Shown: positions 19,374 to 32,823 of the stretch, piece after piece
Layout of the letters: every line of letters starts with the position of its first letter
Position numbering within the stretch: position 1 is the stretch's first letter
Assembly: GCA_014377525.1 (NCBI GenBank)
Contig: JACMPL010000014.1
Coordinates: 1 to 36,489 of the forward strand
DNA: 36,489 bases
Reading direction: 5' to 3'
DNA from: Candidatus Saccharimonadota bacterium
Lineage (GTDB): Bacteria; Patescibacteriota; Saccharimonadia; Saccharimonadales; UBA4665
Notes under the pieces: generated by a model
Databases searched by the model: none
What the model saw: only the letters and a program-made list of their open reading frames with translations
Told to the model about the DNA's origin: nothing
Position numbers and translations under genes: made by a program

Positions 19374-19390
19374 ACTTAAGTTTCTTAAGT
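19374..19390. promoter_or_regulatory. 17-bp perfect palindrome, candidate operator
   Basis: ACTTAAG-TTT-CTTAAGT lies between two divergent genes, about 45 bases upstream of the ATG of the His-rich protein gene (19436) and 25 bases upstream of the minus-strand -10 box at 19341. It is AT-rich, symmetrical and outside any gene. It could bind a dimeric repressor such as the MarR protein encoded at 21410-21865; that link is inference. Confidence 0.45.
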
Positions 19391-19435
19391 TAAGCCGAGC
19401 TGGGCAGTCGGCCATAAACAGGTTATGATAGTAGT

Positions 19436-20137
19436 ATGCCTAATATAATAAAATCTAATACTGTAAAGACACCAGTCGTACTTGAAGATAAGCCGGTTAC
19501 GCGTCGTAAACTTGCGGCATTCAAGCAGCCGAAAGCGATTTTCGTAGTGGGACTTCTGCTTGGTGCAGTACTAATTCTTGGTATCAGGTTTGTAAGCTAC
19601 ATGCCGATGCATCACACCCATTACCACGCCAACTTCGCACTCTACATTAATGGCATGCGTGAGCAGTTCAAAGACAAACAATATTACGAAGATGTGGCAA
19701 TTTGTAGCGCTTCTACCGGCATCACTTTTCCGCAGCAGCGGGCCCACATGCATGACGGCGTCAATTCGGTTGTCCACGTTCACGATAATTCCACGACCTG
19801 GGGTCAATTTTTTGAAAATATCGGCTGGTACGTCGGCCCTAATTTTGTTCAAACTAAAGCCGGCGTGATATATAAAGCCGATGGTGCAACGAAATTACAC
19901 ATCGTCATCAATGGCCAAGATTACACCGATTTAACACCGATAACCAACCAAGTTATTGGGGACAAAGACCGTTTATTGGTTAGCTACGGTGATCTATCGC
20001 AGAACCAAGTGAATTCCGAAGATAAAACGGTCGCTAGCACTGCCGCCAAATACGACGCCTCAATCGACCCCGCCAGCTGCGCCGGTGGCCATGATGAAGC
20101 GCCAACGCTCAAACAACGATTTAACAACTTATTTTAG
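19436..20137 (+). CDS. membrane-anchored exported His-rich protein, probable metal binding
   Basis: The 233-residue protein has a short cytoplasmic tail, one membrane helix (about 34-52) and an external domain with eight clustered histidines: HHTHYH at 59-64, HMH at 104-106 and HVHD at 114-117. Two Cys (about 90 and 215) may form a disulfide. The pattern HxHYHANFALYING with later HMHDG and HVHD looks like an extracytoplasmic copper- or zinc-binding domain, but I cannot name a characterised family. A TATGAT box ends six bases before the ATG (leaderless). The gene is convergent with the CopC-like gene, with two bases between them. Confidence 0.7.
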   Translation: MPNIIKSNTVKTPVVLEDKPVTRRKLAAFKQPKAIFVVGLLLGAVLILGIRFVSYMPMHHTHYHANFALYINGMREQFKDKQYYEDVAICSASTGITFPQQRAHMHDGVNSVVHVHDNSTTWGQFFENIGWYVGPNFVQTKAGVIYKADGATKLHIVINGQDYTDLTPITNQVIGDKDRLLVSYGDLSQNQVNSEDKTVASTAAKYDASIDPASCAGGHDEAPTLKQRFNNLF

Positions 20138-20139
20138 TC

Positions 20140-20700
20140 TTATTTGCTAGCTTTAGTAGCAGCATACCGGCCACCGCGGCGAACATTACTGACGGCTATC
20201 ATAACGAACACGATACTGACGGTCGCGCTGGTAATAAGCACTATACTTGGATCGGCTGTTTTAGCCGAAACGGCAGCCGTGCCGCCGGCTACACGGACTG
20301 GGTAATCTAGCTTGAAACTTTTTGTAGCTGGGTCGGTTGTCGTGCCGGTAACGATAAGATCGTAGACGTCAGCCGTTGGAAAATCGACGGTTGCTGAGCC
20401 CTTGCTGGCCGCGCCAAAGTAAGCAGGATTTATTTGATACTTTGTCACTGCACCGGTTGCGGACTTTACCGACAGGCTTAGGTCGTAATTGTTGATCGAA
20501 AAGGCTCCGTCGCTGCGGGCAAATAAGAAATAGATGCCGATTTGCTTACCGACAACCGGGTTATCGTCTGGGTTGATATGCAAAATAGCGTTAACGCCGT
20601 TATCCGACTCAAGTTCGTGGGCCGAGGCGGGCAAAGCACTGCTTAGGGTCACGTAACTCAGTAAAAATACTGACGACAAGATTACAAAAAAGTTCTTCAT
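20140..20700 (-). CDS. CopC/YtkA-like exported protein with predicted N-terminal His
   Basis: The 186-residue protein has a signal peptide with a consensus ASA cleavage site (24-26), so the mature protein would begin with His27 (HELESDNG). An immunoglobulin-like beta domain follows (about 27-135, with HINPDDNPVVGKQ and PTADVYDLIVTG), then one membrane helix (about 153-172) and a basic tail. CopC and related copper proteins coordinate copper through the N-terminal amine and His side chain, and YtkA-like domains have the same overall shape. Metal binding is inferred. Its ATG overlaps the stop of the ferric-reductase-like gene (ATGA), so the two are translated together. AGAGGT lies upstream. Confidence 0.68.
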   Translation of the reverse strand: MKNFFVILSSVFLLSYVTLSSALPASAHELESDNGVNAILHINPDDNPVVGKQIGIYFLFARSDGAFSINNYDLSLSVKSATGAVTKYQINPAYFGAASKGSATVDFPTADVYDLIVTGTTTDPATKSFKLDYPVRVAGGTAAVSAKTADPSIVLITSATVSIVFVMIAVSNVRRGGRYAATKASK

Positions 20701-21359
20701 AATACCTCTTTCTGAATAGGTTTAGCGAGTTTACGTGATTGGTTTCGATACAGATGGCCGCCGATTATCAGTAAACCGACCGAGCCAAAAGCAGCTAATA
20801 CTGGCGCCGTCTTGGCATGTACCCCAATCAGCGCGACATGTACTACAACCAGTGCCGCCGCGACGTAAACCAGTCGGTGCAGCCGGAACCACCAGATGCC
20901 CATTGCCCGAAATGCCCGGTTGAACGACGTTGCCGCCAAAGCCAGCAGAATGATAAGCGCAAATAATCCGACTAAAAATGCTCGTTGGTAGGTGAGCGGT
21001 AAATCTAGTGGATTTACCGATTTAAACTGTGCAATATACGTTATCAGACTATGCAAGAGCGCGAACCAGGCAGCACCGATACCTATTAGTCGTCGAGCTT
21101 CAAACAGCTGCCGCCTGCCGGGTAGCCGCTTAAATACCGTTAAAGTTGGGCCTATCAGCAGAGCAACCGACAAGAAGCCGATACTGAGCCAGCCGTAGGA
21201 TTCTTCTAGCCGTATTGTTGCTAAGCTACCGCCACCGTACAATGTTTCGCTTAGCCACAGAACCTCCAGCGTGATTAAAGCTATGCTAATAGCAATATAA
21301 AACCTAACACCAGCTATCCAGGTACGAATGATTTTTTTTGCAGAATTCATATTATACAT
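20697..21359 (-). CDS. ferric-reductase-like transmembrane haem protein (MsrQ/FRD type)
   Basis: The 220-residue protein has about six helices. Histidines sit at 103 (ALLHSLITY), 161 (WWFRLHRLVY) and 174 (VVVHVALIG); the last two are 13 residues apart on one helix, the spacing used for stacked b-haems in ferric reductases, NADPH oxidases and MsrQ. No flavin or NAD domain is present, so electrons must come from a partner. Family role: moving electrons across the membrane to reduce metals or oxidised proteins. It is downstream of marR and overlaps the CopC-like gene by four bases. Two ATGs (21359 and 21350) are possible starts. Confidence 0.75.
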   Translation of the reverse strand: MYNMNSAKKIIRTWIAGVRFYIAISIALITLEVLWLSETLYGGGSLATIRLEESYGWLSIGFLSVALLIGPTLTVFKRLPGRRQLFEARRLIGIGAAWFALLHSLITYIAQFKSVNPLDLPLTYQRAFLVGLFALIILLALAATSFNRAFRAMGIWWFRLHRLVYVAAALVVVHVALIGVHAKTAPVLAAFGSVGLLIIGGHLYRNQSRKLAKPIQKEVL

Positions 21360-21384
21360 GGTACGCTACCACTGTTAAAAACAA

Positions 21385-21408
21385 TAGTTTAATTATGTAG
21401 ATTAACTA
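21385..21408. promoter_or_regulatory. imperfect palindrome between marR and the haem protein gene
   Basis: TAGTTTAAT-N7-ATTAACTA, symmetrical except for one extra base, lies in the 50-base gap just before the ferric-reductase-like gene. It is AT-rich and shares GTT/AAC ends with the palindrome upstream of marR (21955-21973), so it may be a second site for the same regulator. Confidence 0.35.
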
Positions 21409-21409
21409 C

Positions 21410-21865
21410 CTACACTCCTGGCGCTGCATTATCCCTGAATGCAGCGAGCGTCTTAAAATAACCGTTGACCTCTTTGTTTGATAAGCCCTCTTCTAGTTCA
21501 GCTGTCTTTTTCTGTAAGTCTTTGTCTACCTTAGCGATCACTTTCTGACCAGCTGAAGTTAGGCCAACCGGTTTCGTACGCTTATCACCGGTATTCGCTT
21601 TACTCTCGACCAGCCCAGCCTTGATGAGTGAACGCGACAGTCTGGTTATGAGTGGAACCTCTACTTCAAGCGAGCGAGCAATGTCAGTTATACGTAGACC
21701 AGTGGCGCTTTCGTACAAGACACTAAGCATCATCCACTGCGTAGTGTTCAAATCAAATCGATTAAGCACACTGTTCACGGCCAATCTGATGCGCCGGTAG
21801 GCAACGACCTGCAAAATCGCTTTTTTGTGGGTTGGGAGAGCTTCAGTCTTTTTTTGTAGTTTCAT
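21410..21865 (-). CDS. MarR-family transcription regulator
   Basis: The 151-residue protein has the MarR winged-helix fold: a helical dimer arm, then LNTTQWMMLSVLYES, the HTH GLRITDIARSLEVEVPLITRLSRSLIKAGLVE (about 56-87) and the wing D-KRTKPVGLTSAGQKV (about 93-108). MarR proteins usually repress their own operon and respond to oxidants, phenolics or metals. There is no Cys, so direct thiol sensing is unlikely. It is the first gene of a probable operon with the haem membrane protein and the CopC-like protein. The Shine-Dalgarno AAGGAAAGG is eight or so bases from the ATG, so this gene has a normal leader. Confidence 0.88.
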   Translation of the reverse strand: MKLQKKTEALPTHKKAILQVVAYRRIRLAVNSVLNRFDLNTTQWMMLSVLYESATGLRITDIARSLEVEVPLITRLSRSLIKAGLVESKANTGDKRTKPVGLTSAGQKVIAKVDKDLQKKTAELEEGLSNKEVNGYFKTLAAFRDNAAPGV

Positions 21866-21926
21866 ATAGTGCCTTTCCTTAGCTTATTGGGAGAGAGGAA
21901 TTTTTTAGTATATATCAGAAAGTCTT

Positions 21927-21973
21927 AGTATAAGCTGAACCAAACCAAACAATTGTTAAATAATTTACTTAAC
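21927..21973 (-). promoter_or_regulatory. marR promoter and candidate autoregulatory operator
   Basis: A -10 box TATACT (21927-21932, minus strand) lies about 60 bases upstream of the marR ATG. At 21955-21973, where the -35 region falls, there is a 19-base palindrome GTTAAATAATTTACTTAAC with only one mismatched pair. This is the size and position expected for a MarR operator. It also lies about 65 bases upstream of the plus-strand DUF4383-like gene and could control that as well. Confidence 0.5.
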
Positions 21974-22038: not shown

Positions 22039-22430
22039 ATGTTGAAGAAATTAGCGCTAGTGTTTGGGGTGGTCTTTATATTAGTCGGTCTGCTAGGTTT
22101 CGTACCAGGCATTACCACTTCGCATAGTGACGGAATGAAATATCTACTCGGATTTTTATGGTTGGTGGCATCTACAATGCTGTTCACCTGCTTTCGGGCG
22201 CAGCAGCCGTCCATACCGGAGTGACATTAGAAAAGTTTGCTCGACTGTATTATATTGTTTTCGGATCAGTGTATGCCCTAGTGATGTTCATCGGATTCAT
22301 ACAAGGTGATACGATTCTTGAAATTTTCTACGTTAATGCCGCGGATAAATTCTTGCACTTATCCCTGGTAATTGCAATCATTGAAATCGGCGCTACCATA
22401 AAACCTAACATACTGCTTACCGCAAAATAG
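22039..22430 (+). pseudogene. DUF4383-like membrane protein split by a -1 frame change
   Basis: Two overlapping frames together make one protein of the DUF4383 type. The first (22039 onward) gives VFGVVFILVGLLGFVPGIT and a stretch ending KYLLGFL. The second starts at 22158 with MVGGIYNAVHLLSGAAAVHTG and ends with two more helices at 22430. The family normally has these parts in one reading frame, joined exactly here. The break is at a run of five T (22153-22157): one extra T would restore the frame. Without the shift the first frame ends at 22224 as 61 residues. It could be a pseudogene, a sequencing error, or a site of -1 ribosomal frameshifting (the codons TTT TTA followed by ATG). Confidence 0.72.
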
Positions 22431-22750: not shown

Positions 22751-23071
22751 CTACTCTGTTGTCGTTTTTACTGGTCGCGTGGTGAGATAAAATAATACAG
22801 CTGCAATGACGAACAATAGCACCGAAAGACTTGATAGGGCGACGTTAGAACCGCCGCCGTGCGACGATACTTCTGGCTTGGCCGTCGTGATACTGGCTGT
22901 TGCTGGAAAGGCGACCGTCGAGACGGACGGCGACGTAAGTTCTATACCACCGGACGAGGCGTTCAATAAGCTTGTCGTCGTGCCCGGCTGGACTGCGGTT
23001 TGGTTTGCTGACGACTGCGGTGCTTGCGTACTACTCTGGGAAGCACTTTGGGTTACGGGTAAATCATTCAT
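22751..23071 (-). CDS. small tail-anchored Ser/Thr-rich protein, unknown function
   Basis: Unrecognised. The 106-residue protein starts with a Ser/Thr/Gln/Pro-rich region (1-70) without a signal peptide, followed by a Gly patch, one membrane helix (about 77-96) and a short basic tail. The order (disordered part, helix, basic tail) suggests a surface-exposed N-terminus with the tail in the cytoplasm. A TATACT box ends seven bases before the ATG, so a leaderless mRNA is predicted. A hairpin at 22726-22747 follows the stop. Confidence 0.6.
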   Translation of the reverse strand: MNDLPVTQSASQSSTQAPQSSANQTAVQPGTTTSLLNASSGGIELTSPSVSTVAFPATASITTAKPEVSSHGGGSNVALSSLSVLLFVIAAVLFYLTTRPVKTTTE

Positions 23072-23507: not shown

Positions 23508-24941
23508 TCAAAGCTTTTGGTAATACACCGCACGCCATGTGAGATTGATAGGGATTTGACTAACTGGAAAATTTGGATCAATTCTCAGATCAAATGGTGA
23601 GCCAGGGTTTGTTGCAATGTAAATATTTTTTCCACCGACGCCGCCAATGGCGGGACTAGTCGAAAACTTAGTTTTATCTAAACATACTCCATTATTCGCT
23701 AATATATACAGCGCGGGTGCAGATGTAGTGCCACTATTCCCCAGATAGGCTGCGCCTCCATATGGGCAAATACTTGTATTTGACGACGGGTCAGTGCCGT
23801 ATACAATCAACGCTATCGGGCCACTGCCAACCATTGTCTGTACAGACGCAAAATTAACATCGCCTTCCACGAAAACATATTTAATTGTATTGGTGGGATT
23901 AAAAAATGTTGGGCTACAAGCTGAAGTTACGCATAGATTGGCGCGGAGATGAACGTTATCGGTAATGTTGTATTGGCCAGAGCCCAGACTCAAATCTCCG
24001 TTTGTACCACAGCTGACACTCACGGTGCTACTACTGTCCGGATAATGGGTTTGCTTACTACCGAGCGAGCTCGGTATATTGTGGGTTAAGCCAGTACCTG
24101 TCCAATCAGCGCACCCAGATTGAGAGTTTTGGTAGGTGTTGTCCATAAATTGAGCCCATGGAACATAAACTGATTGCACTGTAGCGATAGTCCCTTGGTT
24201 TGCCATGACATTAAAGTCGTTATTGCTGTTATTCCCTGGCGGTGTGATGCAGTTATTATACGCCGTTGTAACGTTAGTTTTAGTCTGTCCGATTGTTACA
24301 AAAGCACTTGGTTTTACGAGATTACCGGCGCCTCCAATTGAACAATTTCCGGCACTAGTATTTTTCCCAGCGACTGTAATATTTTCGGCTACCAAGTTAG
24401 TCGTGTTTTTAGACATTGTAATGAAGCCATTGACGAATACATCCTTAGCATAGACGTTTTTGACGCCACTACTTATCGCAAATATATTACGACTAACAAT
24501 AGATGACGCTGATGATGTCGAACTTTGTTGGGTAGTCACACGAATAGTTTGCCGATATTTAGCAGTAGTAGCTGTTGCAGGACTGTAGACCAGACCAGTT
24601 GCCGTTAAGATTCGCTCGGTAATAATGCGACCGGGAGTGACTGCAACCGTGAAAGTAGCTCTGTATGACGGAATGTTTTGGATTACCACTTCACTTGTTG
24701 TGCCCGTGTACGAGCTCATGCCGCTATTTAGCGTAGCAACTGCCGAGTCTGCACCTGCTTCAGCAGCATATTGAGCCTCTAACTGCCCAATCCGGCCTTT
24801 TGCTCGTGATAAATTAGCATTAGCCAAACTAAAAATAGCCAAAATAATAACAGTCAAAAAGATTGTTATCCCCAATATTGCCACTAATATGATGCCCTGC
24901 TCGGCACTATGTTGTTTTTTAAATTGCTTATTGGTAATCAT
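23508..24941 (-). CDS. PilX/GspK-like minor pilin with large C-terminal domain
   Basis: The 477-residue protein has a prepilin-type N-terminus: a positive leader, cleavage expected after Gly16 (EQG, then IILVAILG), and a hydrophobic helix up to about 43, followed by AQYAAEAGADSAVATLNSG, typical of PilX. Glu at mature position 5 is missing (Ala21), as in GspK/PilX-type tip subunits. The external part (about 60-477) is large, Ser/Thr/Asn-rich and beta-strand-like, with several Cys. It is the last gene of a three-gene minor pilin operon, 13 bases after the PilW-like gene. Such subunits prime type IV pilus assembly. Confidence 0.8.
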   Translation of the reverse strand: MITNKQFKKQHSAEQGIILVAILGITIFLTVIILAIFSLANANLSRAKGRIGQLEAQYAAEAGADSAVATLNSGMSSYTGTTSEVVIQNIPSYRATFTVAVTPGRIITERILTATGLVYSPATATTAKYRQTIRVTTQQSSTSSASSIVSRNIFAISSGVKNVYAKDVFVNGFITMSKNTTNLVAENITVAGKNTSAGNCSIGGAGNLVKPSAFVTIGQTKTNVTTAYNNCITPPGNNSNNDFNVMANQGTIATVQSVYVPWAQFMDNTYQNSQSGCADWTGTGLTHNIPSSLGSKQTHYPDSSSTVSVSCGTNGDLSLGSGQYNITDNVHLRANLCVTSACSPTFFNPTNTIKYVFVEGDVNFASVQTMVGSGPIALIVYGTDPSSNTSICPYGGAAYLGNSGTTSAPALYILANNGVCLDKTKFSTSPAIGGVGGKNIYIATNPGSPFDLRIDPNFPVSQIPINLTWRAVYYQKL

Positions 24942-24954
24942 ACGATACTATCCT

Positions 24955-25758
24955 CTAATTTCTCAGCGCAACTCTTATGATTGTACTGTTGGTCGCAGCT
25001 TTAGCGTTATGCATAAAACTACTCTGTGCTATATTCAACGTAAACTCGACAATTTTTACAGATGGGAAATTAGGTCCAATGAACTGACCTGTGTTGGTGT
25101 CGATGATTGATGTGTAGTCAATATTGTTACCAGAACGCGAAAAGTAACGCATACTCACACTAGTCACACTTTCAGCGACGACCGTGTCTGCCGGACACGT
25201 CGATGAAGCTATGGCAGCCGGGCATGTCGTCAGAGCCCGATTACCTACGGCATAAGTATTCGCAAGTGTCCGTGCTAATAATTGATTTGTCGATCCATCC
25301 AAATAAAGCATTATATTATCCTCGTAAGGTATCGCGCCGTTCATAATAATATGCTTTGATGTATCGACACTTGCGCGGTTGTAGTAAAGAACTGGCGTAA
25401 TTGTACCGGAGGCACCTTTATGAATCAGTCCTGGAACGGCGTTTAGAACTAGCCAATAGGTACCCGACGAATTTAACGGATCGGCATTACCAGTATTGGT
25501 ATCAGGTATGTTGTTTTGGTTGATTAGACCAGTGGCCTGATCAATTGCAGAATTAAGATAATCACTCGCATTGAGACGAGATACGAGACTAGCCTGATGA
25601 TTACTTGAAGAGACCGTGTTTCCCCAATAATCAAGCGCAAAGGCACCAACTATAGTAATTAGGAACCCGGATATCGAGATAACTACCACCAACTCTATGA
25701 TTGTTAGACCTGTTACGCTACGTTTCAAAGTATCAAGTTTAGTCGTGCGATAGTTCAT
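24955..25758 (-). CDS. PilW-like minor type IV pilin
   Basis: The 267-residue protein has a prepilin peptidase site Gly16 | LTIIELVVVI with Glu at mature position 5, and a single hydrophobic helix (17-40). The external domain (41-267) has a long first helix (HQASLVSRLNASDYLNSAI) and beta strands, with two Cys near 178 and 187 that could form a disulfide loop. It lies five bases after the first pilin gene and 13 before the PilX-like gene. The role is in pilus tip or initiation complex. The main pilin and assembly ATPases are not in this window. Confidence 0.85.
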   Translation of the reverse strand: MNYRTTKLDTLKRSVTGLTIIELVVVISISGFLITIVGAFALDYWGNTVSSSNHQASLVSRLNASDYLNSAIDQATGLINQNNIPDTNTGNADPLNSSGTYWLVLNAVPGLIHKGASGTITPVLYYNRASVDTSKHIIMNGAIPYEDNIMLYLDGSTNQLLARTLANTYAVGNRALTTCPAAIASSTCPADTVVAESVTSVSMRYFSRSGNNIDYTSIIDTNTGQFIGPNFPSVKIVEFTLNIAQSSFMHNAKAATNSTIIRVALRN

Positions 25759-25763
25759 AGAGG

Positions 25764-26243
25764 CTACTCCTGTCCAATTCCATTACGGCTAATCATGAGC
25801 CGTAATTGTACTGGTGGTAAGCTAGCATTAGGAGCCGGCCAACCAACGGAAACATTAATAACTTTGGAGTCGGGAATCGTCGAAAGCGGATCGCTGGCTG
25901 GTAGGTTTGAGGTGTCGGTCAGCGTCAGCACGGGAGAATAGGTAACGGTAGCCGAGCTTCCGTCTTCAACCGCAAATGTGTTATTTGGAATACAATTGTT
26001 TGAACTGCCTAACAAAGTAAATTCTATGCCGCGATCGAGCTCAGGACATGAGCTGAGTACGGCATACATCTCATTCAGCTGACGTGTAACTGTGTAGGTA
26101 TGCTGCGCAGAATTGTACGCACTTGACATACCAGCTACTAAGAATGGAAATATTATTATCGCAACTAACAACTCCACAATGGTGAAGCCACCCTCACTTG
26201 CCTGTCTGAGTATAAAACGATGATTTTTAATCTTAAGCGACAT
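25764..26243 (-). CDS. PilV-like minor type IV pilin
   Basis: The 159-residue protein has a prepilin site Gly19 | FTIVELLVAIIIF with Glu at mature position 5, and one hydrophobic helix. The external part is short, with two Cys (about 67 and 84) likely forming a disulfide, and ends with a beta-rich VNVSVGWPAPNASLPPVQLRL segment typical of PilV-type subunits. It is the first gene of the operon. A TGC-TACAAT extended -10 box ends ten bases before the ATG. Type IV pili in Saccharibacteria are reported to function in twitching and host contact. Confidence 0.85.
   Translation of the reverse strand: MSLKIKNHRFILRQASEGGFTIVELLVAIIIFPFLVAGMSSAYNSAQHTYTVTRQLNEMYAVLSSCPELDRGIEFTLLGSSNNCIPNNTFAVEDGSSATVTYSPVLTLTDTSNLPASDPLSTIPDSKVINVSVGWPAPNASLPPVQLRLMISRNGIGQE
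26054..26062 (-). other. no separate feature: interior of the PilV-like gene
   Basis: Placeholder within the PilV-like coding sequence; nothing beyond coding sequence is seen at this spot. The operon promoter is listed separately at 26254-26262. Confidence 0.05.
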
Positions 26244-31437: not shown

Positions 31438-32823
31438 GTGAACCTACAACAAGAGATTAAAGCCACCGAAGTATTGCTCGCCAAAGATGTCAGGAAGGCC
31501 AAACGCACCTACAATATTGCCCGGCGGATGCATTATCGTAAACGGTTTGGCCGGTTCGTACGAATACTCGGTCCCGGCGTCGTAACTGGTGCTGCCGATG
31601 ATGATCCATCGGGTATAGCCACTTATTCCCAAGCTGGCGCCGCCTTTGGTACGGGCCTTTTATGGACATTTCCGTTGATGTTACCGTTGTTAATTGCCGT
31701 TCAGGAGTCATGCTCCAGAATTGGCGCCGTAACCGGTAAGGGCCTAGCATCGATTCTTAAAGAAAATTACAGCAAAAAGCTCCTGTACAGTGCTTTGGCG
31801 CTGATTGTTGTCGCTAACACCATTAACATCGGCTCAGATTTAGGTGCGATGGCAGCAAGTACTAAACTGATTTTTAGCGGCGTGCCGTTTAGCGTATTAG
31901 CAATATTTTTTGCGGTACTGATGGTACTTATGGAAATCTTTGTCAGCTACAAAGATTATGTTCGCGCCCTCAAGTGGATCGCCCTCGTACTATTCGCCTA
32001 TCCAATCACGGCCCTGATCATCGGCCAGCCTTGGTTGCACTTGCTCCATGAGACATTTCTGCCCCATCCAATCATTAACTTTACGACCATTTATATTATT
32101 GTTGGCATGCTCGGCACCACCATTTCGCCGTACATGTTCTTCTTGGACACTTCGGAAGTTGTCGAGGACGAGATTGTCAGTCGCCGCATCCGAGCGACCG
32201 GCCAACTGCCGCATGTGACGAAGCATTTTTTGCGAGGTGTTAAGCTCGATAACTTAGTCGGCATGGCCTTTGCCGCCGTCACGGCCTGGTTCATCGTGGT
32301 TGTCTGTGCGTCCGTGTTGTTTACGCATGGCATCACAAACATCAACACCGCTTCGGATGCCGCTCAGGCGCTACAGCCACTTGTAAAGAACTTTCCAAAT
32401 GCTGGCCTTATAGCAAAACTACTATTTTCGATCGGCGTTGTCGGGATTGGATTTCTGGCCGTGCCAGTGCTGGCTGGCTCATCGTCATATGCCATTAGCG
32501 AAACGCTTGGTTGGAAAGAAGGGCTCCACCAAAAGTTTCGACGGGCGCATGGTTTTTACCTCGTTATTGCCGGTGCCACATTTGTCGGATTGCTCATAAA
32601 TTTCCTGGGTATCGACCCGATAAAAGCCCTCGTCTTTACGGCCGTATTCAACGGTATTGCTGCCGTACCATTGCTGTGGATGCTCGTAAAAGTCGGCAAC
32701 AACGCTAAGATCATGGGCGAATACAAGAACAGCCGGCTATCGAGTACCATGATTTACCTTACGTTCAGCATTATGGCTGTCTCGGTGCTGGTTCTGTTTT
32801 ACTCGATGCTGGCAGCCAAGTAG
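31438..32823 (+). CDS. divergent NRAMP-family divalent metal transporter
   Basis: The 461-residue protein has about 11 helices and the NRAMP fold. Family features: helix 1 motif, here DDDPSG (54-59) in place of DPGN, and helix 6, here GTTISPYMF (226-234) in place of the usual MPH. Thus the metal-binding Met and the following His are Ser230 and Tyr232. The Met selects for Mn/Fe and against Mg/Ca in true NRAMPs; members lacking it include Mg transporters. This one may carry Mg or another ion. The start is GTG at 31438. It is divergent from the helicase and convergent with the small exported protein gene. Confidence 0.85.
   Translation: MNLQQEIKATEVLLAKDVRKAKRTYNIARRMHYRKRFGRFVRILGPGVVTGAADDDPSGIATYSQAGAAFGTGLLWTFPLMLPLLIAVQESCSRIGAVTGKGLASILKENYSKKLLYSALALIVVANTINIGSDLGAMAASTKLIFSGVPFSVLAIFFAVLMVLMEIFVSYKDYVRALKWIALVLFAYPITALIIGQPWLHLLHETFLPHPIINFTTIYIIVGMLGTTISPYMFFLDTSEVVEDEIVSRRIRATGQLPHVTKHFLRGVKLDNLVGMAFAAVTAWFIVVVCASVLFTHGITNINTASDAAQALQPLVKNFPNAGLIAKLLFSIGVVGIGFLAVPVLAGSSSYAISETLGWKEGLHQKFRRAHGFYLVIAGATFVGLLINFLGIDPIKALVFTAVFNGIAAVPLLWMLVKVGNNAKIMGEYKNSRLSSTMIYLTFSIMAVSVLVLFYSMLAAK

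What the first reader, a model, noticed from the sequence alone, without database searches (positions are those of the whole stretch)
19374..21973. MarR-linked haem membrane protein, CopC-like protein and His-rich protein: a candidate envelope metal/redox system
Seen: a probable marR - ferric-reductase-like - CopC/YtkA-like operon (marR and the haem protein gene 50 bases apart, the last two overlapping by four bases), facing a membrane-anchored protein with eight clustered histidines, only two bases from its end. Palindromes sit upstream of marR (21955-21973), before the haem protein gene (21385-21408) and upstream of the His-rich gene (19374-19390). Known: FRD/MsrQ-type proteins move electrons across membranes with b-haem, and CopC-like proteins bind copper. 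Inference: the four genes form a regulated extracytoplasmic copper or iron handling/repair unit. It is striking in a lineage thought to lack haem synthesis and respiration, so haem would have to be taken from a host.
Basis: partly seen in the sequence, partly recalled or inferred. Interest (0 to 1): 0.72.

Follow-up and report, generated by a model that had tools for sequence, protein, structure and literature searches.

The report
Haem–copper protein pair in Saccharibacteria
Two neighbouring genes encode a membrane haem protein of the metal-reductase type and a surface-anchored protein with a likely copper site; across the relatives surveyed they occur as a pair, often beside a third copper-protein gene, which suggests they capture and reduce copper for these bacteria's oxygen-using enzyme.

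Summary
Two form a real conserved unit: a YedZ/STEAP-type haem membrane protein (HAEM) and a CrdA/P19-fold secreted protein (COPC) with an invariant mature N-terminal histidine. In 393 genomes of the class, all 21 with HAEM have COPC next door, and all 20 with the copper protein YcnI (DUF1775) also carry COPC, usually just downstream. COPC genomes encode a haem-copper oxidase in 27 of 30 cases (138 of 393 overall); in two congeners the pair ends the cyo oxidase operon. CopD and MsrP were not found in the carriers searched. Best reading: Cu(II) capture plus transmembrane haem reduction to supply copper, mainly to bo3 oxidase. Copper context is strong; reductase activity is inferred. MarR control is plausible: TTAA-N9-TTAA dyads precede marR and HAEM. 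The His-rich gene is probably a neighbour, not a component: it occurs in half of relatives and usually lies elsewhere, often beside the ATP synthase operon. The premise of no respiration is wrong, since the genome has cyoABCDE; lack of haem synthesis is supported by absence of ferrochelatase. New variant of a known kind.

The parts
20697..21359 (-). HAEM: short ferric-reductase-domain membrane protein (220 aa), YedZ/STEAP type; predicted haem ligands H103 and H174 (H161 usually present), Arg89 in place of the first canonical haem histidine
   Evidence: PF01794 E 2e-12; R89, R90, H103, H174 22/22 and H161 20/22 in homologues; profile's best PDB match STEAP2 E 1e-4; always beside COPC
20140..20700 (-). 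COPC: signal peptide, CrdA/P19-like beta-sandwich, C-terminal membrane helix; mature N-terminal His28 plus His41 as candidate Cu(II) site
   Evidence: A27-H28, H41, P44, P48, Y113 invariant 31/31, D46 29/31; AF2 domain pLDDT about 90; CrdA Z 13.7, 1.8 A over 99 residues
21410..21865 (-). marR: MarR/SlyA-family regulator without cysteine, probable local regulator
   Evidence: PF01047 E 2e-12; no Cys, one His; homologue in the same cluster in G007, 35% identical; homologue beside the His-rich gene in G003, 38% identical
21955..21973 (.). candidate operator upstream of marR, GTTAAATAATTTACTTAAC
   Evidence: same spacing upstream of the marR homologue in G003 (GTTAAGTATAATACTTAAC, which may be part of a terminator)
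21388..21406 (.). candidate operator between marR and HAEM, TTTAATTATGTAGATTAAC
19436..20137 (+). HIS: membrane-anchored His-rich protein, convergent neighbour; judged not a core part of the module
   Evidence: conserved in 30/60 relatives; adjacent to COPC only in G000, G002, G005; beside ATP synthase genes in other families
19374..19390 (.). perfect 7-bp-arm palindrome ACTTAAGTTTCTTAAGT upstream of HIS; TTAA half-sites but different spacing from the other two

Best explanation
HAEM and COPC form a two-gene copper-supply module on the outer face of the cell membrane. COPC, once its signal peptide is cut at ASA|H, starts with a histidine that, with His14 of the mature protein (His41 of the precursor), binds extracellular Cu(II), as in CopC, YcnI and other N-terminal-histidine copper proteins. 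In many relatives it can exchange copper with YcnI (DUF1775), encoded just downstream. HAEM, a single-b-haem membrane protein of the YedZ/STEAP type, carries electrons from the quinol or cytosolic flavin pool outward and reduces Cu(II) to Cu(I) at or near COPC. Cu(I) is then taken in or handed to cuproenzymes, chiefly the CuB site of the cytochrome bo3 oxidase, with cupredoxins or multicopper oxidases as other clients. HAEM thus stands where CopD stands in Bacillus YcnJ. In this species a MarR-family repressor probably controls the pair through TTAA-N9-TTAA dyads. Shown: gene neighbourhoods, co-occurrence, invariant residues, predicted fold. Inferred: copper binding, haem binding, reduction, direction of transfer, client, MarR control.
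For: Strict pairing: 21/21 HAEM genomes have adjacent COPC. YcnI/DUF1775 found in 20/393 genomes, all with COPC, usually immediately downstream (P about 1e-26 uncorrected for phylogeny), with its mature N-terminal His invariant 20/20. COX1 in 27/30 COPC genomes against 138/393 overall. In G003 and G004 the order is cyoA-cyoB-cyoC-(small gene)-ctaB-HAEM-COPC, with DUF1775 next in G004. In G007 a plastocyanin-type cupredoxin gene is directly upstream of HAEM; a more distant HAEM relative in a Pacebacteria contig sits in a CsoR, DoxX/MauE, multicopper oxidase, cupredoxin cluster. HAEM carries the YedZ/STEAP signature (Arg for the first haem His) defined in PMC3591440, and its best PDB profile match is the metalloreductase STEAP2. 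COPC fold matches copper proteins CrdA and FetP/P19/HftA. CopD absent from 24/24 carriers searched, MsrP from 15/15. B. subtilis YcnJ/YcnI import Cu(II) for haem-copper oxidases and no reductase is known for them (PMC13344008); CrpH, a haem membrane protein of another family, supports haem-copper oxidases and is a proposed copper reductase (PMC13038864).
Against: No biochemical data. Linkage to the cyo operon itself is seen in only 2 of 21 HAEM genomes, both congeners, whose HAEM copies fall on other branches than the window's. Three carriers (G040, G293, G299) have neither COX1 nor cytochrome bd, so the oxidase cannot be the only client. The window genome lacks DUF1775. COPC has no Pfam CopC/YtkA match, and its second conserved His is not at the CopC position; CrdA itself lacks His. 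STEAP-type proteins reduce several substrates, so the metal could be iron. No importer for the Cu(I) is identified. COX1 co-occurrence is partly phylogenetic.
Confidence: 0.6

Rival explanations
1. Reductive iron handling: HAEM reduces Fe(III), and COPC, whose fold resembles FetP/P19/Tp34, presents iron or copper to an iron importer.
For: PF01794 is the ferric reductase domain; P19/FetP/HftA are second-best fold matches and those systems serve iron; an NRAMP-type transporter gene lies 10 kb away.
Against: Recurrent partners are copper proteins: YcnI, cupredoxin, multicopper oxidase with CsoR, cyo operon. No recurrent iron permease family showed up in the neighbourhood clustering, though not every neighbour was identified.
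Confidence: 0.13
2. Electron delivery to a copper redox protein: HAEM feeds electrons to COPC or a cupredoxin that works as a redox carrier or N-terminal-His copper enzyme, rather than reducing nutrient copper.
For: COPC has an invariant N-terminal His plus a second invariant His and is membrane-anchored next to HAEM; a cupredoxin gene abuts HAEM in G007 and is beside the relative in Pacebacteria.
Against: COPC and YcnI pairing mirrors the YcnI-YcnJ copper-import system; the fold match is to copper-binding chaperone-like proteins, not oxygenases.
Confidence: 0.12
3. Copper defence: the module binds and transforms excess copper at the surface (as CrdA does for resistance) rather than supplying it.
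For: CrdA is a copper resistance determinant and the closest fold; the Pacebacteria cluster has CsoR and a multicopper oxidase.
Against: Reducing Cu(II) to Cu(I) outside would raise toxicity; linkage to cyo and to YcnI, and enrichment in oxidase genomes, fit supply.
Confidence: 0.1
4. MsrQ-type repair of oxidised envelope proteins by a haem protein and a partner reductase.
For: Best NCBIfam hit is MsrQ (54.5 bits, below the 130-bit cut-off); haem histidines align with YedZ.
Against: No MsrP/Oxidored_molyb family in 15/15 carrier genomes.
Confidence: 0.04
5. All four genes, including the His-rich protein, act as one MarR-regulated system.
For: Convergent adjacency retained in G000, G002, G005; the His-rich gene is next to a MarR homologue in G003; invariant His cluster suggests a metal site.
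Against: The His-rich gene occurs in 30/60 relatives, the haem gene in 9/60, and it is mostly unlinked; in other families it sits beside ATP synthase and CobO genes; its upstream palindrome has different spacing.
Confidence: 0.1

Closest known systems
Bacillus subtilis ycnKJI (YcnJ = CopC-CopD-YtkA, YcnI = DUF1775)
   Same: An N-terminal-His Cu(II)-binding domain on the outer face, partnership with YcnI, support of haem-copper oxidases under copper limitation (PMC8424229, PMC13344008)
   Different: Here a YedZ/STEAP-type haem protein replaces CopD (no CopD in 24 carriers); COPC is not a Pfam CopC; regulator is MarR, not YcnK; the window genome lacks YcnI
STEAP metalloreductases / YedZ (MsrQ)
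   Same: Short ferric reductase domain, Arg replacing the first haem His, conserved His pair or triplet (PMC3591440)
   Different: No NADPH domain (unlike STEAP2-4), no MsrP partner (unlike MsrQ), obligate pairing with COPC
CrpH of Bordetella (PepSY_TM) and CcoG
   Same: Membrane copper-reductase candidates supporting haem-copper oxidases (PMC13038864)
   Different: Different protein families; CrpH is tied to a TonB-dependent importer operon, HAEM to COPC/YcnI
Helicobacter pylori CrdA; FetP/P19/FtrA
   Same: Predicted fold of COPC
   Different: CrdA uses methionines and has no His (PMC9182242); P19 family works with iron transporters (own knowledge); COPC has invariant N-terminal His, His14 and a C-terminal membrane anchor

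Membership tests
Ferric reductase domain, YedZ/STEAP group | PF01794 match above gathering cut-off | tested here: met
   47.5 bits against cut-off 28
Ferric reductase domain, YedZ/STEAP group | First canonical haem His replaced by Arg; His at the NOX2 115, 222 (and often 209) positions | tested here: met
   R89 22/22, H103 22/22, H174 22/22, H161 20/22 with Gln in two; spacings 14 and 13 as in the family (PMC3591440)
MsrQ (equivalog) | Score above NF003831 cut-off and an MsrP partner | tested here: not met
   54.5 bits against 130; PF00174 absent in 15/15
CopC / YtkA | Sequence match to a Pfam CopC or YtkA model | tested here: not met
   No such Pfam hit for the window protein or any of 9 homologues at E up to 10
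CopC-like N-terminal-His Cu(II) proteins | Mature protein begins with His after signal-peptide cleavage | tested here: met
   A-H at the apparent cleavage site 31/31; cleavage itself not shown
CopC-like N-terminal-His Cu(II) proteins | Cu(II) binding | not testable with these tools
   needs purified protein
CrdA/P19 fold group | Same beta-sandwich fold | tested here: met
   CrdA Z 13.7, 1.8 A over 99 of 110 residues; FetP Z 11.5; a shared fold shows no function
ycnKJI-type copper import system | YcnI present with a CopC-type protein | tested here: inconclusive
   Met in 20 relatives, not met in the window genome
ycnKJI-type copper import system | CopD membrane domain | tested here: not met
   PF05425 absent in 24/24
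MarR family | PF01047 match | tested here: met
   47.1 bits against 24.6

The most novel reading that the evidence does not exclude
A previously undescribed copper-acquisition system in which a STEAP-like haem membrane protein, instead of CopD, works with an N-terminal-His copper-binding protein (and YcnI) as the dedicated cupric reductase for bo3 oxidase metalation, in bacteria that must scavenge their haem. It would fill the missing Cu(II)-reduction step noted for YcnJ-type systems.
Probability: 0.4. Interest if true: 0.75.

Novelty: new variant of a known kind. Interest (0 to 1): 0.6.

Why it matters
How copper is reduced and delivered to the CuB site of quinol oxidases is poorly known; recent work on Bacillus YcnJ (PMC13344008) and Bordetella CrpH (PMC13038864) argues that a dedicated copper reductase is expected, but none is known for the YcnJ system. 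A two-gene haem/copper pair, conserved in very small genomes and often next to YcnI, gives a simple testable candidate. It also shows that respiring Saccharibacteria invest in copper supply while depending on outside haem. No paper on this pairing was found in the searched library, which holds only open-licence papers.

Tried and rejected
MsrPQ repair: rejected, no MsrP. His-rich protein as a component: set aside after the neighbourhood survey. Its AF2 model is weak (3 sequences, mean pLDDT 58.5); fold search gave only E about 0.02 or worse matches to transcobalamin/haptocorrin beta domains and a putative metal-binding protein, too weak to use. PDB profile search with COPC gave nothing significant. 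Viral contigs held no His-rich relatives; plasmids held no HAEM or COPC relatives. Cytochrome bd as alternative client in oxidase-less carriers: not found. Whole-genome pattern search for the dyad could not be run (cap). A good -35/-10 match at the haem gene start was discounted: promoter-like hits in the region equal the shuffled expectation. Occurrence of the pair outside the class was barely sampled (one genome-contig scan, 6 loci).

Full report
Observation. All four genes, their spacing and the palindromes are as described. Translation signals fit: AAGGAAAGG precedes marR and AGAAAGAGG precedes COPC inside the end of HAEM, which suggests coupled translation of HAEM-COPC; HAEM itself has no clear Shine-Dalgarno sequence. 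Pfam identifies MarR and the ferric reductase domain only.

Where it comes from. Records of close relatives are named Candidatus Saccharibacteria or Patescibacteria. The assembly has 890,971 bases in 40 contigs and is 97% complete. It carries a cyo operon, cyoA-B-C-D-ctaB, on contig C38, so the premise of no respiration is wrong; bo3 oxidases and proposed haem scavenging in Saccharibacteria are published (PMC6031116, PMC8407418). Ferrochelatase is absent here and in all but one of the other genomes searched, so haem would be imported.

The conserved unit. In 60 relatives HAEM occurs in 9 and HIS in 30. In 393 genomes of the class, profile searches find HAEM strongly in 21, and each has COPC beside it; COPC occurs in 30. 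Weaker hits of the HAEM profile (E above 1e-10) are taken to be other ferric-reductase proteins. DUF1775/YcnI was found in 20 genomes, all among the 30 with COPC, in most cases within about 200 bases downstream. COX1 is in 138 of 393 genomes but in 27 of the 30 with COPC. These P values ignore phylogeny; family f1 is nearly all COX1-positive, but the eight COPC genomes of family f26, where COX1 is patchy, are also all positive. In G003 and G004 the pair follows ctaB in the cyo operon, with DUF1775 next in G004. In G007 the order is MarR, unknown, cupredoxin, HAEM, COPC, with a second ferric-reductase-like gene facing away from marR. A more distant HAEM relative in a Pacebacteria contig sits behind CsoR, a DoxX/MauE protein, a multicopper oxidase and a cupredoxin. 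Many of these settings point to copper.

HAEM. Across 22 homologues R89, R90, H103, R162, H174 are invariant and H161 is His in 20, Gln in 2. Spacings of 14 and 13 residues place R89/H103 and H161/H174 at the four haem-ligand positions of the superfamily; Arg at the first is the YedZ/STEAP signature, and presence or absence of the third His is what separates YedZ/STEAP1 from STEAP2-4 (PMC3591440). The best PDB profile match is STEAP2, aligned on the two haem histidines. STEAPs have ferric and cupric reductase activity (PMC3591440). No MsrP is present.

COPC. In 31 homologues Ala27-His28, His41, Pro44, Pro48 and Tyr113 are invariant and Asp46 nearly so. Cleavage at A-x-A|H would leave His as residue 1. 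The AF2 model of the mature protein is confident for residues 1-110, and its first hairpin (strands 2-6 and 9-15) should bring residues 1 and 14 opposite each other, so H1 and H14 could form a copper site; the distance was not measured. The closest solved fold is H. pylori CrdA (Z 13.7), then copper-binding FetP/P19-type proteins. It is not a member of the Pfam CopC or YtkA families.

Regulation. MarR homologues occur in G007, upstream in the same cluster, and in G003, beside HIS at a locus from which HAEM-COPC is missing. [GT]TTAA-N9-TTAA[AC] occurs upstream of marR and of HAEM in the window, and upstream of marR in G003, where the same element could be part of a terminator; G007 has a related dyad with other spacing. 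MarR has no cysteine, so thiol-redox sensing is unlikely; its ligand is unknown.

His-rich protein. Conserved HYHANF, HMHD and HVHD motifs suggest a metal site, but the gene is mostly unlinked to the pair. In the genus it is often near a small membrane-protein gene (the window's 22751-23071 family) and in other families it is followed by ATP synthase genes, with CobO or glutaredoxin genes nearby. The simplest history is that the pair was gained at, or lost from, a HIS - marR - small-protein locus; direction not tested.

Mechanism and confidence. That this is a copper-handling pair I put at about 0.85; that HAEM reduces copper at about 0.6-0.65; that bo3 oxidase is the main client at about 0.55. 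The overall statement gets 0.6. Precedents: YcnI-YcnJ copper exchange supporting Qox with no known reductase (PMC13344008), and CrpH as a haem-dependent copper-reductase candidate (PMC13038864).

Noticed in passing
22039-22430 (+): A DUF4383 membrane-protein gene, divergent from marR, is split between two frames near the T-run at about 22153-22157; both halves match PF14325. Assembly error, pseudogene or frameshift, not resolved.
   Followed up: partly
19436-20137 and loci L029-L036, L060, L061: In distant relatives the His-rich gene lies between CobO (corrinoid adenosyltransferase)/glutaredoxin genes and the ATP synthase operon, while its weak fold model best resembles cobalamin-binding haptocorrin/transcobalamin beta domains. 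Possibly coincidence.
   Followed up: partly
G012 (L180, L181): One Saccharimonadia relative has two strong ferrochelatase matches although the 35 other genomes searched have none.
   Followed up: no
L001:529-1899 (G000:C12): The same genome has a long ferric-reductase protein (456 aa) whose C-terminal half looks like a flavin/NAD domain, a possible second transmembrane electron route.
   Followed up: no
22751-23071 (-): Small Ser/Thr/Gln-rich protein with a C-terminal membrane helix and no Pfam match, conserved near this locus in the genus and in G007.
   Followed up: partly
23508-26243 (-): Pseudopilin-like cluster: two proteins with N-terminal methylation motifs (weak Pfam matches) and a 477-aa protein of similar N-terminal type.
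   Followed up: no
31438-32823 (+): NRAMP-family metal transporter gene in the same window.
   Followed up: no
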